NCBI GenBank assembly: GCA_002478145.1 | Contig: DLMI01000070.1 | Coordinates: 1 to 19,436, forward strand | Source: Acidobacteria bacterium UBA7540 | GTDB lineage: Bacteria > Acidobacteriota > Terriglobia > UBA7540 | Direction of reading: 5' to 3' | DNA length: 19,436 nucleotides | In this document: one piece after another, positions 7,525-19,436 of the stretch | How positions within the stretch are numbered: position 1 is the first letter of the stretch | How the letters are laid out: each line of letters begins with the position of its first letter | Notes under the pieces: model-generated | What the model was told of the DNA's origin: nothing | Database searches by the model: none | The model's input: the letters and a program-made list of their open reading frames with translations, nothing else | Position numbers and translations under genes: made by a program

Positions 7525-8601
7525 ATGCCTCAACAGCAGCGACTAAAGTGGACCCAACTGCGTGTCGGTACAATGGTGATCATCGGCCTGGCAATCTTCG
7601 CATTAGGTATATTCTTCATTAGCGGGCAGGAGGGATTCTTCAGAAGGCGATATAAGCTGAAAGCCTACGTCACCGAGGCCGCAGGACTGCGCCAAGGCGC
7701 CCAGGTCAGCCTGGCCGGAGTCGCCGTGGGCAGCGTGGAACGGATAGAAATCTCACCCTACCCTGAGCGCGCGCGCGCCGTGGAGATTGTGATGCGCGTA
7801 GCGCGCGCCTACCAACACGAAATCCGCGCCGACTCGAGGGCAAGCATTGAGACCGTCGGACTGCTGGGCGACAGCTACGTGAATATTACGCGCGGAAGTC
7901 CTGGCCAGGAAGTGATTGCCGATGGCGGCGTGCTGATAACCTCCGAGGAAGCGGATGTCAAAAGGGTAGTTCAAAACGCCAATGACGTTTTCATCAACCT
8001 GCGCGTGTTGAGCGCCAAACTCAACGACATCTCGGGCCAGATCCAGTCGGGAAAAGGCTCGGCGGGAAAGCTCATCTACGATCAGACCCTCTACAACCGC
8101 CTGAATAAGACAGCCGACACCGTCGACCGGATGGTTACCCGCGTCGATCAGGGCCAGGGAACGCTCGGCAAACTCATGGCCGATGAGACCCTGTACAACA
8201 ACACCGTCGCCACCATTGACCGCCTGAATAAGGCGATCGACGACATGCAACACGGCCCGGGAAGTCTTGCCAAATTTATCTCTGACCCCTCGGTGTACAA
8301 TAACCTGGACCACCTGGTGACCCAGGCTAACTCGCTCGTCGATAACATCAGTCAGGGCCAGGGCACGCTGGGAAAGCTGGCGAAGGATCCCCAGCTCTAT
8401 AACCGCCTGAACGAAACATTCGACCATCTCAATGCCGTTTCAACACGAATGGACCAAGGCCAGGGCACGCTGGGAAAGCTTTCTACGGACACGACGCTCT
8501 ATAACAATCTGAGCCAGAGTTCAGAATCCTTAAGAGATTTCCTCACGGAATTCAAGAAGAACCCCAAGAAATATCTGACGGTGAGAGTGCATATCTTCTA
8601 A
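7525..8601 (+). CDS. mlaD: MlaD-type MCE-domain lipid transport protein with five C-terminal repeats
   Basis: 358 residues, longer than E. coli MlaD (about 180). A short cytoplasmic N-terminus leads to one membrane anchor (about 14-33, VGTMVIIGLAIFALGIFFI), then a periplasmic MCE domain (about 38-120, AGLRQGAQVSLAGVAVGSVERIEI through LLGDSYVNIT), which in the family forms hexameric rings that carry phospholipids. Residues 176-345 are five consecutive 34-residue repeats with the pattern GxGTLGKLxxDxxLYNxL followed by a helix. The ribosome site AAGGAGA is 6 bases before the ATG. It is last in the mlaE-mlaF-mlaD operon; no terminator is obvious. Confidence 0.95.
   Translation: MPQQQRLKWTQLRVGTMVIIGLAIFALGIFFISGQEGFFRRRYKLKAYVTEAAGLRQGAQVSLAGVAVGSVERIEISPYPERARAVEIVMRVARAYQHEIRADSRASIETVGLLGDSYVNITRGSPGQEVIADGGVLITSEEADVKRVVQNANDVFINLRVLSAKLNDISGQIQSGKGSAGKLIYDQTLYNRLNKTADTVDRMVTRVDQGQGTLGKLMADETLYNNTVATIDRLNKAIDDMQHGPGSLAKFISDPSVYNNLDHLVTQANSLVDNISQGQGTLGKLAKDPQLYNRLNETFDHLNAVSTRMDQGQGTLGKLSTDTTLYNNLSQSSESLRDFLTEFKKNPKKYLTVRVHIF
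8050..8559 (+). repeat. Five in-frame 102-bp repeats in mlaD
   Basis: Units start at 8050, 8152, 8254, 8356 and 8458, each 34 codons with no insertions. Units 2, 4 and 5 share the nucleotide core ggccaggg-acgct-gg. They differ enough to be old duplications, and the length stays constant. Confidence 0.85.
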
Positions 8602-8777
8602 CAGGACGGTGAAAAATGTGGGCTAGGAACTGGGGGCTGGAGCAATTTTGAATTTTGAATTGCTTCCTCGCCACTGCCTACGCCTTACTGCCTGCTTTTT
8701 GGAATCATGCCCTTAAAGTAATCGAAAAGCGCCTTGAGGCAAGTTCGGCGCTATGCTAACCTTTTGTTTGGACGCAG
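8602..8777. other. Intergenic region before tRNA-Leu
   Basis: It contains no gene. A tandem ttttgaattttgaa lies inside an inverted repeat (gcaatt/aattgc, 8642-8663), preceded by the word gaactgggggctgg. It ends with the tRNA promoter at 8734-8762. Confidence 0.6.
8734..8762 (+). promoter_or_regulatory. Probable tRNA-Leu promoter
   Basis: TTGAGG (8734-8739), 17 bp, TAACCT (8757-8762). A start near 8770 would leave a leader of a few bases before the mature 5' end at 8778. Confidence 0.4.
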
Positions 8778-8866
8778 GCTGGAGTGGCGGAATTGGCAGA
8801 CGCAGCAGACTCAAAATCTGCCGCCGGTCACCCGGCATGGGGGTTCAACTCCCCCCTCCAGCACCA
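8778..8866 (+). tRNA. tRNA-Leu (anticodon CAA)
   Basis: Acceptor arms gctggag (8778-8784) and ctccagc (8856-8862) pair fully, followed by discriminator A and an encoded CCA (8864-8866). The anticodon stem gcaga/tctgc encloses ctCAAaa, reading UUG. A long variable arm marks a class II tRNA, and the T arm is ggggg-ttcaact-ccccc (8839-8855). The 3' part is the presumed integration site of the element to its right. Confidence 0.96.
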
Positions 8867-8883: not shown

Positions 8884-10014
8884 TCAATGAGATACAACCC
8901 GCTTTTCCCGCGTGTGCCCTAGGCGTGCCCGCCGCCGAATGGCCACGTCCCATGTCCTACGCACATCTGCTTCAAGCTGCTCCTGTCTGGAGCGGACCCA
9001 CGGGGCATAATGCCTCTCGGTAATTCGCACACTCTTGTGGCCAAGTAATACAGATACACGATCTATGGGCACACCAGCGAGCAGCAACTCGACCGCAAAT
9101 GTGTCGCGAAATCGGTGCGCGTGACCGTTCGGCACTTTGGCCAGGGCGAAGAGCCGGTGCAGCGGTCGCCACCAAATACTGCCGGCTAAGCCTTTGGTCG
9201 CGGATTTCCCTGTCCAGAAGTAGTATGGGCCATCCTCGGGGATTGCTGCGAGCGCATCGATTAGGACAGGGGGAAGAGGGCAGTTGACCGGCGTGCCGGT
9301 TTTTGCCGTATAGAGCAAGAGATTGTCTCCTGTGATGCGATCACGGGAGAGCTTAGCAGCATCAGTGAAGCGGAGCCCGCTGTAGCGCAGAAGAAGCACG
9401 AGCGCACGCAGTCGAACGGCGTTGCGTTTGTCCGGATATTCGTTGCACGCTTCTAGAACGCGGCCCATCTCCTCCTTGCTAAACGGCAGTGTCGGAGATT
9501 CCGTGATCATTGGTGGTTTGAGTTTCGCTGCGGGGTTTGAGTCCATCCAGTTGCTCTCGTACGCAAACCGAAAGAAAGCCCGCAGATGCTCGAGTTTTTT
9601 CTTCGCGGCTAGGTTCTTATTAAGCCAGGTGGCGCGAAAGTTCCTTGCCCAATCAAGATTGAAGTCCGAGATGAATACCAAACCGTGCTCGTCTGCGAAC
9701 GCTTTCAGTTGCCGGAAAAGAAGATCGTACTTGTACAGGGTGGCCTCGCGGAGATTTCGAGCTTTGGCGTCTTCAATGAACTTTTCCGTCGCTTCCTGAA
9801 TGGTAGTTGTCTTGCCCCCACCAGCGAACCCCTGAGCTTCCCACTCCCGGGCCTTTCGTTGGGCAACCTGCCAGTTACGAGTGCCCACGGGGCGTCGTAT
9901 GCGTGGGCCGTCGGTACGCCAGTCCATCCAGATTGGACACTGGCACTTGAGGTACTCGCGCCCCTTTTCTCGGTGTGGACAATCTTTGACATGGCGTCGC
10001 CAAAGGATGAGCAT
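8884..10014 (-). CDS. Tyrosine recombinase (integrase) of the tRNA-Leu element
   Basis: 376 residues. A cysteine-containing N-terminus (C12, C24, C26; DCPHREKG then KCQCPIW) resembles a small metal-binding knuckle. A SAM-like core-binding domain covers about 72-160, and the catalytic domain about 175-345. Catalytic residues are complete: R215 (YSGLRF), K238 (TAKTG), H300 and R303 (HRFRD), H326 (LLGHKS) and nucleophile Y336 (ERHYAPW). It catalyses site-specific integration and excision, and the stop codon 17 bp from the tRNA CCA end points to the tRNA-Leu 3' end as its attachment site. AGGAG lies 6 bases before the ATG. It follows the HTH gene at 10115 and is probably co-transcribed with it. 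Confidence 0.95.
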   Translation of the reverse strand: MLILWRRHVKDCPHREKGREYLKCQCPIWMDWRTDGPRIRRPVGTRNWQVAQRKAREWEAQGFAGGGKTTTIQEATEKFIEDAKARNLREATLYKYDLLFRQLKAFADEHGLVFISDFNLDWARNFRATWLNKNLAAKKKLEHLRAFFRFAYESNWMDSNPAAKLKPPMITESPTLPFSKEEMGRVLEACNEYPDKRNAVRLRALVLLLRYSGLRFTDAAKLSRDRITGDNLLLYTAKTGTPVNCPLPPVLIDALAAIPEDGPYYFWTGKSATKGLAGSIWWRPLHRLFALAKVPNGHAHRFRDTFAVELLLAGVPIDRVSVLLGHKSVRITERHYAPWVRSRQEQLEADVRRTWDVAIRRRARLGHTREKRVVSH

Positions 10015-10114
10015 TCGAAACTCCTGCGTTTGTTCTGCGTTTCATGTGGGCCTTCTTGACCGGCCTACTTGGTGCCTCGCATGTGCCCACGACCACCAAA
10101 CTTCTTCCACACCT

Positions 10115-10450
10115 CTAATGTTTCCCGTCCGATACCGCCTGCCCTTGTCGGGACATGTAGGCCCGCGCATTTTGTAGATCGTTAGTATTACTCAGCCTCC
10201 GATGGACCCGCTCCAATACGGACTCTGGTATGCGGAGGGTCGCATACCTGTTCCCGATCACCAAAACGCCCCGCTCTCGGCGAAAGAGGCGCCGCACAGA
10301 ATCCCGACTCAAGCTCCAAAGCTTTGCCACTTCACTGACGCTGTAATGCCGCTCGCCGTGAGGCATCAAAGACAACACCGAGGGCTGCAGGGTCGTTTGT
10401 CTCTCCCGCATTTCGGTTTGCCGTTCTTCAAGTGTGCTCAAATTTCCCAT
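10115..10450 (-). CDS. Excisionase-like / MerR-type HTH DNA-binding protein
   Basis: 111 residues. Residues 35-60 (RHYSVSEVAKLWSLSRDSVRRLF) are a winged helix-turn-helix of the excisionase/HTH_17 type, followed by a wing (GVLVIGNRYATLRIPESVLERV). The ATG at 10450 is chosen because GGAAGG lies 5 bases upstream; a TTG six codons earlier is also open. It sits 100 bp upstream of the integrase on the same strand, the usual place for a recombination directionality factor. It might instead regulate the integrase. Confidence 0.8.
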   Translation of the reverse strand: MGNLSTLEERQTEMRERQTTLQPSVLSLMPHGERHYSVSEVAKLWSLSRDSVRRLFRRERGVLVIGNRYATLRIPESVLERVHRRLSNTNDLQNARAYMSRQGQAVSDGKH

Positions 10451-11241
10451 GTTCACCTTCCACACCAACTGTCAAAAGCTCGCCAAGCCTTTGTCGGCAC
10501 TAAGACACCAACCGTTCTGTTCGACCGGCGCTGTGGTCCAGACGAGCTTAGTTCTGCAACGGAGAGTTTCGCCTCCACTTACACTGCCGGTACGAGTTGT
10601 TTCGATTTAGTGAAACCAGTGCTGGGCCTACAGAGGCTTGTTGCGCGTAATCCCCTGTCATCTACATAGAACAAGCTGTTCTACCTGTCAAACGGCCCAG
10701 TCCAGAATCCCTGTACGTAAGTTGGTTATTTGGGGAAGTAATTGGAAACGTGGGATTTGTGGGTCTATTGGGCAGACGCCACAGACACCCCGCGCGATTC
10801 GCACGCGGCACGTCGAAACGAATTCGATGCAACCACAACGTTGCTGCCGGAGACGACCAAAATCACCTGGTGCCAATGAGGACCCGTGACCGCGGGCGGC
10901 GGTGTGTCGGTCGTGTTTCGCTGTAGAAAACTGCGAAGTAAAGGCTTCGCAAGGAGATCCGCCAGATTAGAAACGCCTCACCGTTGCCAGCGAACGTGCC
11001 ACATCCTATAAGACCCGGCCCCTTTCCTCTTGCGGATGGGCCCAGAGGTAGTTGTTGTTAGCCGTGTGCAGCTTCGGGCGTCGGGCACCCACGCGAGTCT
11101 AGACGCGGTTCTCACAAGCGTCGACCCGTGAAAAAAAAGTGGCAACTGACATGGTCTCTCTTTGGTTACGGACATGGGCGCATCGACGGCTGCGCCGCCC
11201 AATGGCGATCTACGCTCTTGGGACGCACTGACGAACTTGCG
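10451..11241. other. 790-bp gene-free stretch inside the element
   Basis: No convincing gene on either strand. Two hairpins are visible: tgcgaag/cttcgca (10932-10938, 10945-10951, 6-base loop) and ggcgca/tgcgcc (11177-11182, 11191-11196). A minus-strand frame 10978-11202 ends in a basic stretch but lacks a ribosome site and a family. The segment may contain regulatory or transfer-origin sequences, but no iteron or nic-like motif is recognised. Confidence 0.45.
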
Positions 11242-12165
11242 TTAGGCCCCAGCGCCCGCCCCGGTCGACGGAGTGGCGGTTTCTGAGAATTCGGCTTGGC
11301 CTGGGTGTAGCAGGGAATCCATATTCGCCTTTAGTCGGACCAAGGCCGCCGCATGGAGCTGGGAGACCCGCGATGCGTCCACCTTCATACAGTCGGCAAT
11401 CTGTTTCATAGGCAACTCCTGCTGATAATAGTGGAGGGTAATGATTTGTCTTTCACGCTCCTTCAGGCTGGAAAGCGCGCGACCTAGAATCTCACACTGC
11501 TCACGACGGTAGCAGAAATCAAAGGGATCGGGATCGTCACCCGGAAGAAACGCTGGCTCAATCTGTCGGCTGACCGACCTGGAGGTCGGGCCCGCCGAAA
11601 GAGTGCGCGCGCTGAAGTCGAATCCCACGCTCTGAACCTCGTCGAGCGCCCTGTGCCATTGCGCCAGATTCATTTCCTGCGCCGCGGCCATCTCCTCGTC
11701 AGTGACCGGACGACCGAGCTTGACCTCCAGTTCGTGATAGAGCTTTTGGATTCTTTGGTTCTTGCGTCGTAAGTCCCGGGAGGCCGGATCGGCGGCACGG
11801 AGACCGTCCAAAATGCTTCCGCGAATCCGGTGCCGTGCGTAGGTCTCCAACCTCACCCGCTTGCTCGCGTCAAACTTGGTGACCGCATCGACCAGTCCCA
11901 GCACGCCGTCTGAGAACAGGTCATCCAGCTCCACACGGGCAGGCAGGCGTTTGCGGATCTTCAGAGCCACGCGCTTTACCAAGGGAAGCATATCAACCAA
12001 CAGCTTCTCCCTGTCTTGGAGGGCCTTTCCCTCGTGCCTTCTCCTGGGACGCAAAATCGGAGGAGTCAGGGGTCGGCGCGGTCGCGCCGGCGAGCGAGGG
12101 CGAAGATTGGCCACTGCCGTCAAGCTGCTCAGTTGCTGAAAAGTAGGACCGGATTGAGTTGCCAT
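11242..12165 (-). CDS. FliA/WhiG-type (sigma28-like) RNA polymerase sigma factor
   Basis: 307 residues from the ATG at 12165, preceded by GAAGG; a GTG five codons upstream is also open. A proline/arginine-rich N-terminal tail (about 1-50) is followed by sigma region 2 (about 54-125, LVDMLPLVKRVALKIRKRLP, ELDDLFSDGVLGLVDAV, RLETYARHRIRGSILDGLR), region 3 (about 128-180) and region 4 (about 240-295, LKERERQIITLHYYQQELPMKQIADCMKVDASRVSQLH). This is the FliA/WhiG branch of group 3 sigma factors. No flagellar gene is near. Its place between the integrase and the VWA/MoxR genes suggests it directs transcription of element genes. The acidic/Ala C-terminal tail has no known role. Confidence 0.92.
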   Translation of the reverse strand: MATQSGPTFQQLSSLTAVANLRPRSPARPRRPLTPPILRPRRRHEGKALQDREKLLVDMLPLVKRVALKIRKRLPARVELDDLFSDGVLGLVDAVTKFDASKRVRLETYARHRIRGSILDGLRAADPASRDLRRKNQRIQKLYHELEVKLGRPVTDEEMAAAQEMNLAQWHRALDEVQSVGFDFSARTLSAGPTSRSVSRQIEPAFLPGDDPDPFDFCYRREQCEILGRALSSLKERERQIITLHYYQQELPMKQIADCMKVDASRVSQLHAAALVRLKANMDSLLHPGQAEFSETATPSTGAGAGA

Positions 12166-12411
12166 AGAACCCTTCGTCACTCTGGAATAGACCCATAAAG
12201 GTCAGCGCCTTTCGACCTTGGGCTACGTTGCTGATGTCCGCAGGCAATACTTCAACGGCAGCGTGGAGGCTGTGGCTCCGCGCTCCATCCACGTTTCCGG
12301 CCTTTGGGGAGGTTCTTCTCAGGCGGGTTGTGCTATGGCAATGGCAGGATGACTATGATGACGAGTTCGGAATGAAAACACTCGCGGCGGGATCGTTCAA
12401 GGCACATTGCT

Positions 12412-13707
12412 TTATTCAAGGTCAATCCGGACCGTATCCCCGAAACGCGCAGTTCGACGGGAATCGGTTACCCAAAGCACCGGATATTCCGGCGCCTCCG
12501 GATACGAATCACAACACAAATCGGTGAGATAGATAAGGCAGGCCGGCGCGAGGTCCTTTTCAGTGACCCACTCGAAAACCGGGCAGAAGTCTGTGCCTCC
12601 ACCGCCTTTGGGTTCGAGTTGCACCGGTTCCGACGCTCTGAACTCTTGAGCGGACTGAACTGCTGCATCGCAATACACCACGTGTATGGCTTCCGGCTGC
12701 GCCTCCTCGGAGATGGCCGAGATTTCACCAGCAAATTGTTCCAGCTCGAGTCTTCCGATCGAGCCGGAGGTGTCCACCGCAATCACGATCTCGCCCAATC
12801 CCCGGCGCTCGATTGAGGGCAAGTACAGGCCCGATGCGATGTACCTCCGATTGGGTGGGGTCCAGCGATAATCAGAGGGCGTAGTGGCGGCCACAAAATC
12901 ACGCAGGATCGCGCGCCAATCCTGCATGGATTGGCGGCTTTCGCTAAGCGGCCTCTCGATCCCGGCAGGTTCGTGTCCCCACGCCTTGGCCGACCGCTGG
13001 GCCTGCTCCGCGGCGACGCCCCACTCGTGCTCCTGGCGACGCTTCTCGGCGGGTGAAGCCGTATGACCGTGCTCATCGGTCGCGTCCTGGACCTCGCCGA
13101 ACCCTCCGGGCCGCATCGATGCAGGCCGCGCGGCTTCACCCGTCGTCCGCCCGCGCTGGTCTGAAATTGGCTGGTGAGAGGCGTCTGGCTTCGGATTGGA
13201 GGGCGCAGTGCCGTCTGTCCCTTGCGGACCCGTAGCCATCCCACCGCCGGCATTCGTCTGCTGCTGCGGCGGCTTCGCTGCTCCGTTCCCCTCGCTTGTT
13301 CTCCGTAGCAACCGGGCATAGATTTCTTCGGCGCTCAAGTTGTTGAACGAAGGATCGATCAGCGCCCCAGCGGGCAGCACGAAACCGTTTCCGATCAGAA
13401 TAGGGTTGATGGCGAAGTCCGCGGCTTCATTCCAAAGCTCCGGATCGCGTTCGCCGCGGCGGCACTGGTGCCCCAGCGCGCAGTGCAGGACTTCGTGGGC
13501 GAGCGTTCCCTCGAGTTCTGCTGGCTTGAGTTCATCCACGAAGGCTGGGTTATAGACAATCCGCGAGCCGTCAGTCGCCATCGTTGGCAGAGTTCCGGGT
13601 ATCAGTTTCAGCCTCAAGCTGAGCGTGCCAAAGAAAGGCTGCTTCAACAGGAGCTGAACGCGTGCCCGAGTTAGCTTTTGTGCCGGGGTGGTGTGAGAAG
13701 GCTTCAC
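12412..13707 (-). CDS. VWA-domain protein with N-terminal DUF2201-type metallopeptidase domain
   Basis: 431 residues from the GTG at 13707. Residues 10-135 form a putative metallopeptidase domain with the zinc motif HEVLHCALGH (H71, E72, H75) and the following RDPELWNEAADFAIN. Residues about 138-260 are a Gly/Pro/Thr/Gln-rich linker. Residues 305-425 are a VWA-like domain with the MIDAS residues DTSGS (D312, S314, S316), T372 (GGGTDF) and D396 (YLTDLC). VWA proteins of this type work with MoxR ATPases as metal-dependent assembly or remodelling factors. The start is fixed by a 4-bp overlap (GTGA) with the stop of the upstream gene and by GGAGGG before it; an ATG 22 codons earlier lies inside the upstream gene. 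Confidence 0.9.
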   Translation of the reverse strand: MKPSHTTPAQKLTRARVQLLLKQPFFGTLSLRLKLIPGTLPTMATDGSRIVYNPAFVDELKPAELEGTLAHEVLHCALGHQCRRGERDPELWNEAADFAINPILIGNGFVLPAGALIDPSFNNLSAEEIYARLLRRTSEGNGAAKPPQQQTNAGGGMATGPQGTDGTAPSNPKPDASHQPISDQRGRTTGEAARPASMRPGGFGEVQDATDEHGHTASPAEKRRQEHEWGVAAEQAQRSAKAWGHEPAGIERPLSESRQSMQDWRAILRDFVAATTPSDYRWTPPNRRYIASGLYLPSIERRGLGEIVIAVDTSGSIGRLELEQFAGEISAISEEAQPEAIHVVYCDAAVQSAQEFRASEPVQLEPKGGGGTDFCPVFEWVTEKDLAPACLIYLTDLCCDSYPEAPEYPVLWVTDSRRTARFGDTVRIDLE

Positions 13708-14630
13708 GCCGCCCTCCCTTCGTCTGGCGCAGGGACCGAATAGCCAGCCATATACGCGGCCATGCGGTCGCAAATCGCTGTGGCTGCCTTCGCGGTCTCG
13801 CTACGAACCGACTCCGACTTCCGCAGCTCTTGGGGATCGACTAGCAGTGAGGCGCGCACCTGGGCAGCTAGCCGTTCCAGTTCCGGGTCTCCCGTGACGT
13901 TCAGCTTGGGCAAAACATCGACGAGTTTCACCAGGTTTGTGACGACGGAATCGCGGAAGGGATGTTCAACCCCCTCCCCCGTCACTTTGTAGGCTTGGAG
14001 GCGTTCGGCCAGGTGACTGACAGCCTCGTACAGCCGCTGCCAAAGCTCACGACTCGCGACCTGAAGCGATGCCTCGACGGCGGCGGTGATCTGACGCTTG
14101 ATTCGCTCTTTCTCCTCGTCGCCCAGTGTGACTCGGAAGTCGCCTGCATCCGGCAGAGGCATCACTTTGGTTTCGAAAGAGAACTTGGAACGGAGTTCTT
14201 CGGGAGCCGGATAATCCTCCGAACGGAACAGACCGCCCAGTCGTACCCTGGCCTCCTCCACAAGCAGTCCGAACTGCTGGGTCAAGGTATCGATGGCTGG
14301 TGTGAACTGGTTCGATAGCTGCCGCATTCTCTCCGTGTGGTCCATATACGCTGCGGCTGGGAGCACGCGATAGCCGTTATCGTCCCAGGGCAGGGTCATG
14401 AAGTAGTGATCCTGACGGGCCTCGCTCACGATCTTTTGGACCTCGGCGAGGGCTGCCTTGGGGAGAAGCACCTTGTGATACCGGCCGGCATCGGGCTGCG
14501 CACCGTGGCGCTGCGCAATTTCCTCGGATGCTTCGCGGTCGTGTTTCCGCGCCGACCACATGCTGATCGAAAGCGAGCACAGCATGGCTCGGGAACACAG
14601 CGACGGTTCTGCGACCGAGATCGAGTTCAT
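13704..14630 (-). CDS. DUF3150-like protein, partner of MoxR and VWA genes
   Basis: 308 residues, largely helical by composition with an all-soluble profile. The segment LCSLSISMWSARKHDREASE at the N-terminus and the position between MoxR and VWA/metallopeptidase genes resemble DUF3150 proteins, which recur in this gene trio on mobile elements. The assignment rests on context and overall look, not on a catalytic motif. The ATG at 14630 has AAAGGAGA upstream. Its stop overlaps the start of the VWA gene, implying translational coupling and a fixed protein ratio. Function is unknown. Confidence 0.75.
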   Translation of the reverse strand: MNSISVAEPSLCSRAMLCSLSISMWSARKHDREASEEIAQRHGAQPDAGRYHKVLLPKAALAEVQKIVSEARQDHYFMTLPWDDNGYRVLPAAAYMDHTERMRQLSNQFTPAIDTLTQQFGLLVEEARVRLGGLFRSEDYPAPEELRSKFSFETKVMPLPDAGDFRVTLGDEEKERIKRQITAAVEASLQVASRELWQRLYEAVSHLAERLQAYKVTGEGVEHPFRDSVVTNLVKLVDVLPKLNVTGDPELERLAAQVRASLLVDPQELRKSESVRSETAKAATAICDRMAAYMAGYSVPAPDEGRAA

Positions 14631-15220
14631 GGCATTTGTCTCCTTTATCGGGGAGTATTCTGCAAGTACAGGAATCCAGAAACAGACGTTCTCGATTCTT
14701 GCGAAAGGCGGGGTTTCATAAGTGGATTAAAGATGTGATGGTGGTTGCCTTCGTGCCGATTGTTCACAATTCCGGCAGTCATAATGAAGTGCAGAATCCT
14801 GGACTAAGCCCGCCCAATCAGCTGCAAACGCTGGGTGACAAGGCAGGAATAATAGGCCAACTGCCGAGTGGCCGACGACCCATCCGGGATCTCGCTTTGC
14901 ACTCTCCACTATCCGCTTTTTGGGACCGACTCAGGTGTCAGTCTAGCTGACATATCAGGAGTAAGCTCGACGCCACCTACATTTCGCCAGACCCTTCCCT
15001 CCTGGCACAAAGGCGCCCGAGTCTGCCAAGGCGTTTCCATATAACCGTTCCCGTATCGTCTCTAAGACAATCAAGCAGATGGGCTGACCGAAAGGGTCTC
15101 GGTTTCTGAATAGCGGTGGCGCCAGCAACAATTGGGAAGTGCGAGACTGGTACGGGGTGCCGGTCTCACGGTGTTGCAGAGCTGCTTTTGACGTGTGGTT
15201 GACCAAGAACGTCTGGTAGA
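14631..15220. other. 590-bp gene-free junction region
   Basis: This separates the minus-strand DUF3150-like gene from the plus-strand cassette. No convincing gene is present; minus frame 14955-15233 is open but has no family or ribosome site. A hairpin tgtcag-tctag-ctgaca lies at 14936-14952, next to a cagg-tgtcag word shared with 3416-3431. It could hold the left junction of an inserted cassette and the divergent promoters for both sides. Confidence 0.45.
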
Positions 15221-15718
15221 ATGAGAGGCACACTTAGTCAGAAATGGGAGAACCTAATATTGGATCTCAAACGTCCAAGCTGCCACGAAGCCGGCCATGC
15301 GGTTGTCGCGCTATTTTTCGGCTTTCGCGTTGACGGAATTGAGGCATTCGAAGGTCGCTTCCGCACCATGTGCGAACTCGATGCCGACGACCGGACCGAC
15401 AGGGAACGCTTCATCTTTCTCGCTGGTGGGATCGCGGGCGAGAAATTTGGTTTAGGCAACTATGACTCCGGCGGTTGCAATGATGACCGAGAGAAAATCT
15501 CCGAACGTGGAGGGGAATCAATCGAAACGTATCTGACTGAAGCCGCTGCAATCATCGAGTCGAACACGGAATGTTTCCGAGAGCTAAGGAAGAATATCAC
15601 GATCGCGGCGATTGAAAGAAGCATGGAGATGTCGATCACTGGCGGCAAGAGTTCCTTCAAGCTCGTCGCTGGCGATGAAATTCAACGAACTTGGACACTA
15701 TTCCAAACTGGGAAATAG
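15221..15718 (+). CDS. Stand-alone M41-type zinc peptidase domain protein
   Basis: 165 residues. HEAGHAVVALFFG (H22, E23, H26) is the HExxH zinc site in the form typical of FtsH-family (M41) peptidases, followed by AGGIAGEKFG and GGCNDDREKI, where D88 or D89 would be the third zinc ligand. There is no AAA+ domain and no membrane segment, unlike FtsH. It is likely a soluble metalloprotease. It lies 33 bp upstream of the ApeA-like gene on the same strand, so the two are probably co-transcribed. The ATG lacks a clear ribosome site, so the start is uncertain by some codons. Confidence 0.8.
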   Translation: MRGTLSQKWENLILDLKRPSCHEAGHAVVALFFGFRVDGIEAFEGRFRTMCELDADDRTDRERFIFLAGGIAGEKFGLGNYDSGGCNDDREKISERGGESIETYLTEAAAIIESNTECFRELRKNITIAAIERSMEMSITGGKSSFKLVAGDEIQRTWTLFQTGK

Positions 15719-15751
15719 CAACGCGAGGCGCCGGTAAAACTGATTCCACTC

Positions 15752-17215
15752 ATGGCGGAAATACTAAAAGAACGCGGCTTCTTCTGGTGGTTTAACGAAC
15801 CGAAGCTCCCGACGAACTCAAAAGAAACCTCCGTTCCGGCCCTCTTGACCATTACAGACGACGGTCAGATCACACTTGAGGCTGATGGCTCTCTGTGTCT
15901 GAAGGACGAATACCAAGACTGGTCAAAGCCCCGAACCTTCCCCGAAATGAGGCGAATTGCGGGTCGCCTAACCTCTAGCGGTAAGTATGTCTTGCTCGAG
16001 GGCCTCGAGCGCACAGACTTCTCATTCCCCGATGAATCGCCACAACAGCAGCGATTCGGTGCTGAGCTATGTGTTCACCGAGAGAGCCCATTTCCAGAGA
16101 CTTACGGGCGAGATAATTTCATTGAGCTTCGCATAGAGTTGGCCGGCTTCGAGGACTGGCTTGGGTTACAGAGCATCGTCGTGGACCGAGAACATTCCGA
16201 GAGTGACGAGGTTCATGTTCGGGTCTCATACAGGGAGTGGCAACTCCAATATCCTTCCCTTGGGGGGACCATCTCGGTCGAGTCAATCACAACGGGAGCA
16301 CCCATCCTTCCCCTCTGGAACCACCCTACGAATGAGGCTCAATTCAGGCAGCACTATTATTTAGTCTTCAGACCTGACTCCCCCCGCGATGCGGCTAGCC
16401 TGCGCTATACTTATTTGAAGCTTGAAGAGCTCCTGGGATTGCTGATTGGCACATACAGCCGTTTCGCGGCGCCCATTTTGGTGGGTAAGGAAGAGCCGTA
16501 TGATGCCTGGAACACGTTGTATTTCTACCGTGGCGCGCCGTTTCCACAGCCCATCAACCGATATTCGGTGTGGGTGCCATTCGACCGCGTCAGAGACGGG
16601 TTCGGGGAGATCCTCAAAAATTGGCTAGTAGGGAGCGAATCATACGGGGCGGGCTACTACCTGTATATTTCCTCGCTGCGAAATCCGCACCACTACTCTG
16701 AACATCGGTTCGTGAACTTGGTTTGGGGCGTCGAAGCCTTGCATCGCAAGTGGCTCGCTGAATCAGAGGCATCGGAGCGCGTCGTCACGGACCGAAAACG
16801 GGTGGAGCGCATCCTCAGTTTGTTGACAAATGATAGCGACGATCAAAAATGGCTCAGCAAGAAACTGGCGCACGCGCACGAACCGTCGCTGGAGGTTCGC
16901 ATTCTGGAATGCCTGCGCAAACTCCCCTTCACCTTCGGCCGAGGGGAGATCGAAAAGTTCGCAAAAGCGTGCGCGGATAGGCGAAACGACATCTCACACG
17001 CTGGCGGTCCACGGGAGAACGTGGATTACGATTTCTTCCACTTGCAGATTTCCCGGTTGGCAGAGGCGCTAGATCACCTTTTTCACGCGTTGCTGTTGCA
17101 TCAGATTGGAGTCGATCCGACCGTTATCTTTGCGGTCATGACAGACAGTCTGGTCTCGGAACGCATAAAAACCGCGTTGGTGGACGTTGGTTTATCCGTT
17201 AAGTCAGTTGCCTAG
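15752..17215 (+). CDS. ApeA-like HEPN anti-phage defence protein
   Basis: 487 residues, consistent with ApeA. The N-terminal half (about 1-300) is rich in beta strands and starts with RGFFWWFNEP, followed by IAGRLTSSGKYVLLEGL, resembling the ApeA N-terminal domain. The C-terminal part (about 315-470) is a helical Apea-like HEPN domain: RFVNLVWGVEALHRK opens it, and the ribonuclease motif is RRNDISH (R411-x4-H416). ApeA is a defence protein whose HEPN nuclease is thought to block translation on infection. HEPN residues look intact, so it is probably functional. It follows the M41-type gene and precedes the cyclase-like gene, all on the plus strand. Family assignment is from recognition of the fold pattern and motif. 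Confidence 0.85.
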   Translation: MAEILKERGFFWWFNEPKLPTNSKETSVPALLTITDDGQITLEADGSLCLKDEYQDWSKPRTFPEMRRIAGRLTSSGKYVLLEGLERTDFSFPDESPQQQRFGAELCVHRESPFPETYGRDNFIELRIELAGFEDWLGLQSIVVDREHSESDEVHVRVSYREWQLQYPSLGGTISVESITTGAPILPLWNHPTNEAQFRQHYYLVFRPDSPRDAASLRYTYLKLEELLGLLIGTYSRFAAPILVGKEEPYDAWNTLYFYRGAPFPQPINRYSVWVPFDRVRDGFGEILKNWLVGSESYGAGYYLYISSLRNPHHYSEHRFVNLVWGVEALHRKWLAESEASERVVTDRKRVERILSLLTNDSDDQKWLSKKLAHAHEPSLEVRILECLRKLPFTFGRGEIEKFAKACADRRNDISHAGGPRENVDYDFFHLQISRLAEALDHLFHALLLHQIGVDPTVIFAVMTDSLVSERIKTALVDVGLSVKSVA

Positions 17216-17537
17216 CCTCAATGAGCGATGCCGCCGACTCCACCGGAACTTTAGTTGTTGGCAACACCGTTTGCTCAAGTCTCTGCGACCGTAATATTGG
17301 CGATGCTGTAGGGAAGGTACACCGACAAACCGAAAGTTAACCAGAACAATCCGACTCCCATTACTAATACGTCTTGCCGACTCCAAACTGAGTGGATGTC
17401 GCAGGGCGGACGCTGCCAGGCAACGCTCAAGGGAAAGTAGGTCTCAACCGCGTCAGTGAGTATTGTGTAAGAATTTGCCAAATCAGCATGATGAGAGGTG
17501 GTAGACTTAAAGCACTTCTACTGATATCAAGTGTCCG
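17216..17537. other. Intergenic region between ApeA-like and cyclase-like genes
   Basis: It contains no strong gene on the plus strand. On the minus strand, 17275-17481 is open for 68 codons with a TTG start and a hydrophobic stretch of about 24 residues (listed separately). No clear promoter or terminator is seen. Confidence 0.4.
17275..17481 (-). CDS. Possible small single-span membrane protein
   Basis: A 68-residue frame whose second half (DVLVMGVGLFWLTFGLSVYL) could span the membrane once. It starts at TTG without a ribosome site and the frame is open further upstream, so it may be non-coding. It is recorded because small membrane proteins often accompany defence genes, and here it lies next to a cyclase-like gene that lacks an effector. 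It has no cyclic-nucleotide-binding domain. Confidence 0.2.
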   Translation of the reverse strand: MANSYTILTDAVETYFPLSVAWQRPPCDIHSVWSRQDVLVMGVGLFWLTFGLSVYLPYSIANITVAET

Positions 17538-18377
17538 ATGGCAGAACCATTCGAGGCGACGTTCATTCTATTTGTAGACATGCTCGGCTTTGCGGCTCTT
17601 GTCGAAAAGGAAGGTGACCAGCTCAACCAGCTCAGCCCAATTTTTACCAACGTTGAACTATATTCCCCATCTCCTTCGGAGAGCTTGCTTGGGCACCGAT
17701 TTGTCAATTTTCATCGTTGCCTCAATCAAGCTCGTGTGCGCCTCCAGGAACTGGGAGCAGGCACTGCAATAGTGTTTTCCGACTCAGCGTTCCTTCGAAC
17801 GGACGGCATCGAGAATGCCGTCCATATCGCGCGTACCCTTATGTTCGACTTGGTCACAAGCGAGGTGCCCGTCCGTATGGGCCTTGCACGTGGCTCTTAC
17901 CGTATGTTGCGATTTCTCACGGACTCGTCCGCTCGCGTGTCCTTTCACATGTCGCAGTTCCTGGGAACTGGGGTCGTTCGTGCCTACGAAACCGAGCGCA
18001 GCGGAGTCCCTGGACTGCGAATCCTATTGCATCCAGCTCTCGAGCCACTGTTGGATAAGGACGCGCTGCGAATCATTCCAGTGGAGCCGAGCGGGAAACT
18101 GCGGCTGGATGTCCGGTCTGAAGTTAACTATCTAGAAAAAAAGAATGACCTGGGTCTGGGTCCGGACTATGACGATTGCATTCAGTTCGACTGTTTGCGT
18201 TGGATGGCTGGCGTGACTGAGGAACAGTTTCAATACCACTACATCGGGACATTCAAGGCGTGGAACGTTATGCGCGCACAGCTCGGACGTGCTCCCTATC
18301 CATGGGAGAAGTTTTTGGATCGAGACGAATACGACTACACACATGGAATACGTGAGCGGCCGTCCGCCGACGGCTGA
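17538..18377 (+). CDS. Class III nucleotidyl-cyclase-like protein (Pycsar-like?)
   Basis: 279 residues. The N-terminal 125 residues show the core of the class III cyclase fold: FILFVDMLGF with D14, GTAIVFSDSAFL with D82 (the two positions that hold the metal-binding aspartates), and VPVRMGLARG (R113), which matches the vR-x-GI-x-x-G strand. A following block (FLGTGVVRAYETERSGVPGL) is typical of the stand-alone bacterial cyclase-like proteins that include the Pycsar cCMP/cUMP cyclases. The C-terminal third is unassigned. The fold is well supported; substrate and activity are not. It follows the ApeA-like gene by 322 bp, and no Pycsar effector (TM-cNMP-binding or TIR) is next to it. The start ATG lacks a good ribosome site. 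Confidence 0.65.
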   Translation: MAEPFEATFILFVDMLGFAALVEKEGDQLNQLSPIFTNVELYSPSPSESLLGHRFVNFHRCLNQARVRLQELGAGTAIVFSDSAFLRTDGIENAVHIARTLMFDLVTSEVPVRMGLARGSYRMLRFLTDSSARVSFHMSQFLGTGVVRAYETERSGVPGLRILLHPALEPLLDKDALRIIPVEPSGKLRLDVRSEVNYLEKKNDLGLGPDYDDCIQFDCLRWMAGVTEEQFQYHYIGTFKAWNVMRAQLGRAPYPWEKFLDRDEYDYTHGIRERPSADG

Positions 18378-18390
18378 AGCCCGACGGCCG
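18357..18390. repeat. 8-bp inverted repeat across the cyclase-like gene's stop
   Basis: cggccgtc (18357-18364) and gacggccg (18383-18390) pair perfectly around an 18-base loop containing the TGA. A convergent gene ends 80 bp further on. There is no T run, so a terminator role is possible but not shown. Confidence 0.4.
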
Positions 18391-18469
18391 AAATTCTGCA
18401 AAGGAAGCGCAGGGACTCTCGGGCACCCACGGCGATTGGTCCTGACGAGCGGCGTAGTGTAGACCGTCA

Positions 18470-19436
18470 CTAGGCAATGGCGTGATGGTTCTCGATGGCC
18501 CATTTGGTGTAGCCAGCGGTACACCGAATGGCGGGCACACGGAGGGTGGCGTCACGCACACAGAGTACCCGAAACTCGGTCGGGAGGCGATTCAGGTACA
18601 GGCAGATGCGGTCGAAGTTGGTATCGGAGGCGCAGCGGGCCAGCGCGGAAGCCACCGCGTACTGCGCTGCCGCATTCTCCGGCACCGGTTCCTGGGTTGG
18701 GTTCAACAGGATGGCATCGATATTGGGCAATTCCCGGAACATCCGCAAAAAGGCTGAGAATTCCGTGGCCGCGCCGGTGCCTACCGCTCCTGCTATGACT
18801 TCGTGCTCAATCACTGGGTTCGCTTGCGAGTCGAGGGAATCGAGAATGCGCGAGACAAACTCCCAGGAACGCGGCGATGGGAAAGCATTGGCGTCACGGT
18901 CGAAGGCACTCAGCAGCTCCGGCCGGAAGCGAAGGAAAGCAATTACCTCCGGACGAATCCCCGCCTGAATCGCCCATTCCGACCAATCCTGTACATCTAC
19001 CTCAAACTCCAAATGCACGAAACGATTCCGGAGCGGAGTCGGCATCCGTGTCGTCACTGCCCGGTCCGAATCGCGGTTCCCGGCGGCGATAATGGCCCAA
19101 CCATCGGGTAAGTTGTATTCACCCAATTTGCGATCAAGGACCAACTGATAGCAACTGGCCTGTACCATGGCTGGCGCCGCATTCAGTTCGTCCAGGAAGA
19201 GAATCCCTGTTCCGTCCTGCGGCAAGAACTCCGGCGTCGCCCATTTCGATCGGCCGTCGCTGCCAAGGAACGGCAGACCCCTTAGGTCGACCGGATCGAG
19301 CAAGAGTGCCCGTACATCCTGAAGCGGGATCTTCAAACCTTCGGCAAGTTGGCGGACGATAGCGCTCTTGCCTACGCCAGGTCCTCCCCAGATAAAGACA
19401 GGTTGCCGAGCTTCCACGTGTGACTGGAACCATAAA
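18470..19436 (-). CDS. MoxR-type AAA+ ATPase, 5' end beyond window
   Basis: The frame is open to the right edge, so the start lies outside; a GTG at 19417 is probably internal because coding-like residues (LWFQSHVEARQP) continue upstream. Numbering from that GTG, Walker A is GGPGVGKS (11-18), Walker B ILFLDELN (D76, E77), sensor 1 is in IIAAGNRDSD and the arginine region is PTPLRNRF. Members of this family remodel or activate partner complexes together with VWA proteins. The two expected partners lie on the same strand but 3.8 kb downstream, separated by three genes on the opposite strand. The C-terminal third (about 190-315) is the lid and a less conserved tail. Confidence 0.9.
   Translation of the reverse strand, partial: LWFQSHVEARQPVFIWGGPGVGKSAIVRQLAEGLKIPLQDVRALLLDPVDLRGLPFLGSDGRSKWATPEFLPQDGTGILFLDELNAAPAMVQASCYQLVLDRKLGEYNLPDGWAIIAAGNRDSDRAVTTRMPTPLRNRFVHLEFEVDVQDWSEWAIQAGIRPEVIAFLRFRPELLSAFDRDANAFPSPRSWEFVSRILDSLDSQANPVIEHEVIAGAVGTGAATEFSAFLRMFRELPNIDAILLNPTQEPVPENAAAQYAVASALARCASDTNFDRICLYLNRLPTEFRVLCVRDATLRVPAIRCTAGYTKWAIENHHAIA

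What the first reader, a model, noticed from the sequence alone, without database searches (positions are those of the whole stretch)
14631..18469. Defence-like cassette inserted inside a MoxR-DUF3150-VWA operon
MoxR ATPase, DUF3150-like and VWA/metallopeptidase genes normally adjoin. Here the last two still overlap by 4 bp, but MoxR is 3.8 kb away, and the gap holds three genes, all on the opposite strand: an M41-type peptidase, an ApeA-like HEPN protein and a cyclase-like protein. This suggests a cargo hotspot within a conserved operon of the element. Breaking the operon would also force the DUF3150-VWA pair onto its own promoter, which may itself lie in the junction region 14631-15220.
Basis: partly seen in the sequence, partly recalled or inferred. 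Interest (0 to 1): 0.82.

Follow-up and report, generated by a model that had tools for sequence, protein, structure and literature searches.

The report
Swappable gene slot inside mobile operon
In a group of related bacterial mobile elements, one three-gene unit is repeatedly split at the same place by different passenger genes, several of them phage-defence-like; here there are three such passengers, and related elements have other genes, or nothing, in the slot.

Summary
MoxR (18470-19435, minus) and DUF3150-like (13704-14630, minus) lie 3,839 bp apart, DUF3150 and VWA overlap by 4 bp, and the gap holds three plus-strand genes: an M41/FtsH-like peptidase domain, a complete ApeA (NTD1 + HEPN, RNDISH) and a class-III-cyclase fold.

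The hotspot reading is supported. Among ten elements (window included) with DUF3150 at 76-100% identity, MoxR-DUF3150 spacing was measurable in nine: five occupied (1.5-3.8 kb), four empty (51-214 bp); the tenth (G003) also has a gene there. Cargo of the six shows no cross-similarity. Sisters G001/G050 carry different cargo; sisters G003/G004 are occupied versus empty. One of 31 distant relatives and one of 39 plasmids are also interrupted.

Corrections: cargo is not always defence, nor always antisense (G357: diphthamide-synthase-like + DUF6580, co-directional; G498: MetK). The slot is one of seven variable intervals among 17 in the backbone shared by G050 and G002, elements with PRTRC and conjugation genes. 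The own-promoter claim is unproven: no sigma-70 match, but a 221-bp non-coding leader is shared with G050.

Most likely: an ordinary cargo hotspot at a position I did not find described.

The parts
18470..19435 (-). MoxR-type AAA+ ATPase, first gene of the operon; 5' end cut by the window end
   Evidence: ORF; AAA_5 1.1e-4; 77-91% identical in ten related elements
13704..14630 (-). DUF3150-like gene, second gene of the operon
   Evidence: ORF; 619 relatives at E <= 0.001; DUF3150 sub-threshold
12412..13707 (-). DUF2201_N putative metallopeptidase + VWA-like gene (GTG start), third gene; 4-bp overlap with DUF3150
   Evidence: PF13203 8.1e-54, PF09967 1.4e-29; overlap kept in eight relatives
14631..18469 (.). 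occupied cargo slot between MoxR and DUF3150 (3,839 bp, GC 53.4% against 59.2% MoxR and 61.3% DUF3150-VWA)
   Evidence: interval comparison
14631..14674 (-). DUF3150-proximal spacer with Shine-Dalgarno-like AGGAG, homologous to the empty-site spacer of G004: puts the DUF3150-side junction near 14675
   Evidence: local alignment, 35 of 43 aligned bases identical; 0 of 200 shuffles reach the score
14666..14886 (-). non-coding leader upstream of DUF3150 shared only with G050 among the six occupied loci compared (153 of 223 columns identical); candidate promoter/regulatory region
   Evidence: no sigma-70-like site, no Rfam match, no unusual fold
15221..15718 (+). cargo 1: stand-alone M41/FtsH-type metallopeptidase domain (165 aa)
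   Evidence: HEAGH in A3; model pLDDT 93.5; Foldseek to FtsH 8.7e-5
15752..17215 (+). cargo 2: ApeA (NTD1 + HEPN, R-x4-H at residue 411)
17538..18377 (+). cargo 3: class III nucleotidyl cyclase-fold protein (279 aa); D14 and D82 invariant in 30 aligned proteins (window included)
8778..8866 (+). tRNA-Leu (caa), likely integration site (left end of the element; inference)
8884..10014 (-). tyrosine integrase of the element
   Evidence: PF00589 2.1e-14; phrog_1 2.3e-40
10115..10468 (-). small helix-turn-helix gene beside the integrase
   Evidence: HTH_17 3.3e-4, below cut-off
11242..12180 (-). sigma-70-family sigma factor beside the VWA gene
   Evidence: PF04542 7.3e-13, PF04545 2.1e-12

Best explanation
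The stretch 14631-18469 is an occupied accessory-gene slot (cargo hotspot) in the backbone of an integrative, probably conjugative, element; most of the close relatives are in Acidobacteriota. The backbone operon encodes a MoxR ATPase, a DUF3150-like protein and a metallopeptidase/VWA protein, probably a chaperone-type remodelling module (inferred from MoxR-VWA pairs in general, PMC7159879 section 8). Shown: in related elements the same place, between the MoxR stop codon and the DUF3150 ribosome-binding site, is empty or holds unrelated genes, while the flanking genes stay intact in all but one (G357 MoxR reads in two frames). Shown: sister elements differ in cargo. Inferred: cargo is gained and swapped by recombination between co-resident elements or by illegitimate insertion, and only insertions that spare the flanking genes persist as a rule; no dedicated recombinase, transposase or bracketing repeat was found in this slot. 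In the window the cargo is three genes read against the operon: ApeA most likely acts as an abortive-infection RNase, and the M41-like peptidase and the cyclase-fold protein as separate or accessory defence/stress genes (inferred from family and fold). DUF3150-VWA then need transcription that starts inside the slot or passes through it against the cargo (inferred).
For: Spacing in the close clade: occupied window 3842, G050 2750, G002 2019, G357 1585, G001 1485 bp; empty G006 214, G004 77, G005 59, G150 51 bp. G003 has an opposite-strand gene upstream of DUF3150 (its MoxR is off the contig) and a second 2.06-kb insert between DUF3150 and VWA. Intermediate relatives G499 and G510 are empty (82, 105 bp), and 30 of 31 relatives at 38-43% identity are contiguous, at most 154 bp; the other, G498, has 5.5 kb. 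38 of 39 plasmids with both genes located have at most 192 bp. Occupied 5 of 9 in the close clade against 1 of 31: Fisher P = 0.001. No cross-locus similarity (BLASTP E <= 1e-3) among 26 mechanically called cargo ORFs of at least 100 aa from six loci. G001 and G050 are sisters (support 100 on codons, 94/96 on protein) with CPBP-protease and TIR cargo respectively; G003/G004 (100 on codons, 98/99 on protein) are occupied against empty; with G003 counted as occupied the label needs 3 changes on the protein tree, at least 2 forced. Identity is 74-87% in the flanking coding ends and, outside them, mostly near chance beyond 15 bases. Element context in relatives: PRTRC B, ThiF, E above NCBIfam cut-offs in G050; SSB, TraD/TraG-like, VirB4/TraC-like and AEP-primase genes above Pfam cut-offs, and a beta clamp, in G050 or G002.
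Against: The window ends inside MoxR, so no transfer gene of this very element was seen, and its host is not told. The close relatives are draft or MAG contigs, some short (G001 is a 4.7-kb contig, coverage 1.2 by its title, from a bin named only 'bacterium'), so misassembly or misbinning is possible in single cases. Window and G050 share a leader, so not all occupations are independent events; shuffled labels give a mean of 4.3 changes and 84 of 500 shuffles need as few as the observed 3. Within the close clade the contrast with the DUF3150-VWA interval (5 of 9 against 1 of 9) is not significant (P = 0.13). No integration machinery for the cargo was found.
Confidence: 0.86

Rival explanations
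1. [quoted passage not shown]
For: Occupants include ApeA-HEPN + M41 peptidase (window), TIR (G050), CPBP protease (G001) and, between DUF3150 and VWA, DUF6880/PDC-S62 (G003); published MoxR-vWA systems have variable effectors and one class has an FtsH component (PMC7159879, passages and sections 8 and 21).
Against: The core persists without any occupant in 4 of 9 close relatives, in 30 of 31 distant ones and in 38 of 39 plasmids. Most Acidobacteriota occupants are antisense to the core; some are metabolic (MetK, diphthamide-synthase-like). The third component of the published FtsH class has two FtsH-type AAA+ domains; the window protein is a 165-aa peptidase domain alone. Other backbone intervals carry unrelated cargo too.
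Confidence: 0.06
2. The three plus-strand genes form one defence system (ApeA + peptidase + cyclase signalling) that moved as a unit.
For: Same strand; ApeA starts 33 bp after the peptidase gene; a cyclase-fold enzyme next to a HEPN effector recalls signal-effector defence (analogy is mine).
Against: 322 bp separate ApeA from the cyclase gene. The 82%-identical cyclase gene of G212 has no ApeA or M41 relative on its 19.8-kb contig; the 48%-identical ApeA of G170 has neither partner in 19 kb. No plasmid match for the peptidase or the cyclase. Only few loci could be examined, and the M41 profile matched nothing at all in the loci held, so that search had no positive control.
Confidence: 0.15
3. 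Operon break by rearrangement: the MoxR and DUF3150-VWA genes come from two different elements joined by recombination, with other genes between them.
For: Elements differ in gene order around the operon: the window has integrase-HTH-sigma beside VWA, G050 has SSB and PRTRC genes. The closest relative differs by gene: MoxR G001/G002, DUF3150 G001, VWA G004/G050.
Against: MoxR, DUF3150 and VWA of the window find the same set of elements, and spacer DNA next to DUF3150 is homologous to an empty site.
Confidence: 0.05
4. Assembly artefact of a draft or metagenome contig.
For: No whole genome is held for the window; the close relatives are drafts.
Against: Several separately assembled relatives show the same kind of interruption with other genes, one of them (G050) in a 437-kb contig.
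Confidence: 0.03

Closest known systems
Hot spots / variable regions of SXT/R391 integrative and conjugative elements (PMC6541609, passages seen)
   Same: Conserved conjugative backbone with several positions where each element has its own accessory genes, including restriction-modification systems
   Different: Other hosts; here one slot splits a MoxR-DUF3150-VWA operon that is otherwise contiguous; relation of the integrase to that of SXT was not tested
PRTRC-bearing conjugative plasmids of Burkholderiales (e.g. NZ_CP013454)
   Same: MoxR-type ATPase, DUF3150-like and VWA genes in the same order between PRTRC genes and type IV secretion genes
   Different: Plasmids; about 31-43% identity in the three proteins for nearly all listed records; spacer almost always empty (38 of 39)
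ApeA HEPN protein
   Same: NTD1 + HEPN with R-x4-H; described as a HEPN family fused to ApeA-NTD1 (PMC3710099, passages)
   Different: Nothing tested experimentally; pairing with an M41 peptidase is not mentioned in the passages I read
Pycsar pyrimidine cyclases
   Same: Class III cyclase fold with two invariant Asp; an Anabaena uridylate cyclase (8jsz) is among the Foldseek matches, rank 31
   Different: No cyclic-nucleotide receptor domain recognised in the two other cargo genes
MoxR-vWA-centric ternary conflict systems (PMC7159879)
   Same: MoxR + VWA core with variable neighbours
   Different: Core occurs without such neighbours; third component of the FtsH class absent

Membership tests
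Cargo hotspot of an integrative and conjugative element | Conserved flanks with different genes in different elements | tested here: met
Cargo hotspot of an integrative and conjugative element | Empty sites in close relatives | tested here: met
   G004, G005, G006, G150
Cargo hotspot of an integrative and conjugative element | Element carries integration and conjugation genes | tested here: inconclusive
   Window: integrase next to tRNA-Leu, but it ends before any transfer gene; relatives G050/G002 have TraD- and VirB4/TraC-like genes
PRTRC-bearing elements | PRTRC proteins near the MoxR operon | tested here: inconclusive
   Met in relative G050 (PRTRC B, ThiF, E above cut-off; F below), and G004 has relatives of the G050 PRTRC E, F and B genes behind VWA; the window shows none, but MoxR's upstream side is cut off
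DUF3150 (PF11348) | Score above Pfam gathering cut-off | tested here: not met
   16.1 bits against 24.9; some close relatives carry the precomputed PF11348 label, so it is called DUF3150-like
ApeA | ApeA N-terminal domain and HEPN domain above cut-off | tested here: met
   PF18862 and PF18739
ApeA | HEPN R-x4-H motif | tested here: met
   RNDISH at residue 411
ApeA | Anti-phage activity | not testable with these tools
   needs an experiment
M41 (FtsH) peptidase | HExxH zinc motif and M41 fold | tested here: met
   Pfam M41 itself only E 0.11
M41 (FtsH) peptidase | AAA+ domain of FtsH proper | tested here: not met
   165 aa, no AAA match; so M41-like domain, not FtsH
Class III nucleotidyl cyclase | Cyclase fold | tested here: met
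Class III nucleotidyl cyclase | Catalytic activity | not testable with these tools
   D14 and D82 invariant; that these are the metal-binding Asp is my reading
Pycsar | Adjacent cyclic-pyrimidine receptor/effector | tested here: inconclusive
   Pfam shows no such domain in the two other cargo genes, but an unrecognised receptor is not excluded; definition from the abstract start of PMC11224242 in the listing
MoxR-vWA FtsH ternary conflict system | Third component with two FtsH-type AAA+ domains | tested here: not met

The most novel reading that the evidence does not exclude
The MoxR-DUF3150-VWA module is the constant engine of an exchangeable immunity device: elements plug different toxic or signalling effectors (HEPN RNase, TIR, membrane protease, cyclase) into its centre in antisense, so that loss or arrest of operon transcription de-represses the effector.
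Probability: 0.05. Interest if true: 0.88.

Novelty: new member of a known kind. Interest (0 to 1): 0.5.

Why it matters
It gives an addressable place to look for new defence genes, mainly in Acidobacteriota elements: read whatever lies between MoxR and DUF3150. The occupants include proteins with no Pfam family (the 279-aa cyclase fold, the 260-aa protein of G002, the 235-aa protein of G050), two of them in loci with recognised defence domains, so the slot can serve as a discovery bait. It also shows that a module which is otherwise contiguous across distant elements tolerates interruption, which makes the role of that little-studied module testable: no paper in the searched library holds the word DUF3150.

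Tried and rejected
Site-specific integration or transposition into the slot: no repeat longer than 17 bases was found in 14560-18560 and none brackets the cargo, and no transposase or integrase is among the three genes; an ancient event is not excluded. A conserved RNA in the leader: no Rfam match, folding z -0.13. Leader as a decayed gene: the G050 copy has stops in all six frames and the window copy in five of six; mismatches show no three-base period. Leader elsewhere in six genomes: nothing found, but that search also missed the known 69% copy in G050, so it shows nothing. Viral contigs: DUF3150 profile 2 loci at 38-40% (both in the spacing table); peptidase profile none of 116 candidates, cyclase profile 1 of 40, VWA 3 of 6 (these four loci were not analysed). 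Phage records: 3 at 30% for DUF3150, not followed. Rows dropped before the spacing counts: G143 (decayed or cut; no MoxR on the contig); distant DUF3150 relatives L008, L018, L034-L041 and L044 (25-29% identity where tblastn saw them, no MoxR or VWA match in the flank held); 5 of 44 plasmid records (four not listed, one without listed MoxR coordinates); G003 from the count of nine because its MoxR is off the contig. Plasmid and distant-relative counts are not corrected for near-identical records or several copies per genome. The 266-aa co-directional ORF of G050 has no Pfam match and a 246-aa ORF overlaps it on the other strand, so its strand is uncertain. In the large genome searches only some first-look candidates per genome were scored (5), and overlaps the sample.
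Full report
What is there. The window shows, from left to right, a tRNA-Leu (caa) at 8778-8866, a tyrosine integrase (8884-10014, minus), a small HTH gene, a sigma-70-family gene (11242-12180, minus), a DUF2201 metallopeptidase/VWA gene (12412-13707, minus), a DUF3150-like gene (13704-14630, minus), three plus-strand genes (15221-15718, 15752-17215, 17538-18377) and a MoxR-type ATPase gene that runs off the end (18470-19435, minus). The DUF3150-VWA overlap is the 4 bp GTGA.

Relatives. DUF3150 gave 619 homologues. One scan of genome contigs gave 8 loci, 6 of them at 76-89% identity; the titles of five of these name Acidobacteriota or Terriglobia, the sixth (G001) only 'bacterium'. An even sample of the class of G003 gave a DUF3150 relative in 27 of 399 genomes at E <= 0.001; the family of G050 4 of 39 at 1e-100 and its order 4 of 40 at 1e-90; the family of G357 22 of 300 at 1e-50 and 6 of 398 at 1e-90 (overlapping sample); the family of G001 1 of 13 at 1e-50. 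In plasmids 44 of 72,556 records matched, mainly Burkholderiales.

The interval. In nine close elements with both genes on the contig, MoxR-DUF3150 is occupied in five (window, G001, G002, G050, G357) and empty in four (G004, G005, G006, G150). G003 lacks MoxR on its contig but has an opposite-strand gene upstream of DUF3150, and a further 2.06-kb insert with a DUF6880 gene (PADLOC PDC-S62 2.3e-7) between DUF3150 and VWA. G499 and G510 (56-57% identity) are empty. Of 31 relatives at 38-43%, 30 have at most 154 bp and many overlap; in the other, G498, the gap is 5.5 kb with a MetK gene, a gene matching SNAP/TPR families and unknown ORFs. Of 39 plasmids with listed coordinates for both genes, 38 have at most 192 bp and one, Simplicispira NZ_CP027670, has 3,635 bp with eight co-directional annotated genes including one annotated as an addiction toxin (PemK-like only below cut-off). 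In Burkholderia cenocepacia NZ_CP015038 an IS21 pair stands between the ATPase and VWA genes where no DUF3150 gene is annotated. In G400:C168 a BRO-N gene lies between DUF3150 and VWA.

Occupants. G001: CPBP/Rce1-like protease (6.7e-15). G002: a 282-aa and a 260-aa gene without a family above cut-off. G050: a 235-aa unknown and a TIR_2 protein (1.4e-16), plus a 266-aa co-directional ORF of uncertain strand. G357: diphthamide-synthase-like (8e-35) and DUF6580 (6.9e-33), both co-directional. Taking what I judge to be the genes of at least 150 aa in the MoxR-DUF3150 interval of seven loci (window, G001, G002, G003, G050, G357, G498), twelve are antisense to the operon and four are sense, one of these being the uncertain ORF. 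In the Simplicispira plasmid all eight are sense. None of 26 mechanically called cargo ORFs of at least 100 aa in six loci resembles one in another locus. GC of the interval is lower than of both flanks in four of five loci; in G357 it lies between them.

Turnover and junctions. On a codon tree of DUF3150, G001 and G050 are sisters, as are G003 and G004, each with support 100; on the protein tree 94/96 and 98/99. The first pair has different cargo, the second is occupied versus empty. The occupied state needs three changes on the protein tree, with at least two forced by well-supported branches; shuffled labels give a mean of 4.3 and 84 of 500 need as few, so the state is not strongly clustered. 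Pairwise identity among six elements is 77-87% in the first 300 bases of DUF3150, and among five 74-86% in the last 300 of MoxR. Outside, compared without gaps, it is 7-40% in the first 15 bases after MoxR and 20-93% in the 15 bases before DUF3150, which hold the ribosome-binding site; farther out it is mostly near chance. The exceptions are window-G004 (52% at -16 to -40) and window-G050 (63% at -41 to -100). These are the 44 bp that the window shares with the empty-site spacer of G004 and the 221-bp leader that it shares with G050. Breakpoints therefore hug the gene ends. That is expected if only insertions that spare both genes survive; it does not by itself show a site-specific mechanism.

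The element. In G050, on a 437-kb contig, the operon is accompanied by PRTRC proteins B, ThiF and E (above cut-off) and F (below), an SSB gene and a VirB4/TraC-like ATPase; a TraD/TraG-like coupling protein, an AEP primase and a beta clamp were identified in G002 and have relatives at 80-92% in G050. G006 shares part of the transfer genes, and G004 has relatives of the G050 SSB and PRTRC E, F and B genes behind VWA. Of 17 intervals between 18 shared genes of G050 and G002, seven are variable; others than this slot hold, for example, Hsp70 and GrpE-domain genes, a cation-efflux gene, a cupin and a TonB receptor. The slot is thus one of several. In the plasmid NZ_CP013454 the same three genes lie between PRTRC and type IV secretion genes. 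That the window's element is conjugative is inferred.

Promoter. Two sigma-70-like sites were found in 14500-18600 against 2.3 expected, none in 14631-15220. The element brings its own sigma factor, so other promoter types are possible. The shared leader is a candidate, no more.

Comparison with what is known. Accessory hotspots are a known property of conjugative elements; passages on SXT/R391 were read (PMC6541609). MoxR-vWA conflict systems (PMC7159879, passages and sections 8 and 21) were considered as a rival; the FtsH class fails on its defining third component, and the other classes were not tested. DUF3150 is in no paper of the library. A search for integrative and conjugative element with Acidobacteri-, defense and hotspot gave five papers, none of which by title or abstract start concerns these elements; two searches on hotspots in conjugative elements gave one and two papers, seen as listings only. 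I therefore file it as a new member of a known kind: a cargo hotspot at a position that I did not find described in those searches.

Noticed in passing
L052 (G143:C88) 9023-10688: tRNA-Ser with partial relatives of the integrase and HTH genes and only fragments of VWA and DUF3150 at the contig end (one stop inside DUF3150): apparently a decayed relative of the element's left end in another tRNA gene
   Followed up: partly
L090 (G259:C29) 8562-8672: Possible relic of the cyclase-fold gene: its residues 240-276 at 73% identity inside a frame otherwise unlike it
   Followed up: no
L002 2607-6320 (G002): Opposite-strand pair of an Hsp70-like and a GrpE-domain 701-aa protein between beta clamp and MoxR; weak PADLOC hit PDC-M61B 3.9e-9 on the Hsp70-like protein
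   Followed up: partly
L049 (G357:C20 25333-26180): MoxR of G357 lies in two reading frames, so the occupied site may go with a broken MoxR, or the draft has an error
   Followed up: no
L100 (G498:C319) 11829-13172: A gene with all three S-adenosylmethionine synthetase domains as cargo within the operon
   Followed up: no
window 11242-12180: Sigma factor next to VWA; L003 has a short relative at the same place (41% over 68 aa), so element-specific transcription is possible
   Followed up: no
window 12412-13707 and 18470-19435: VWA and MoxR match phage families phrog_1314 (2.1e-92, labelled HNH endonuclease, which looks like a wrong label) and phrog_1297 (1.3e-100)
   Followed up: no
L034, L044 (G071), L035 (G227) and others: A second, distant group of DUF3150 relatives (25-29%) in the same class, up to four matches per genome, without MoxR or VWA matches in the short flanks held
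   Followed up: no
protein cluster P0121 (window 17538-18377): The cyclase gene's cluster spans 83 contigs, longest 39,985 bp; P0011, a DUF3150 at 87% identity, is on a contig of the same length, so the cyclase gene may sit in a divergent element too
   Followed up: no
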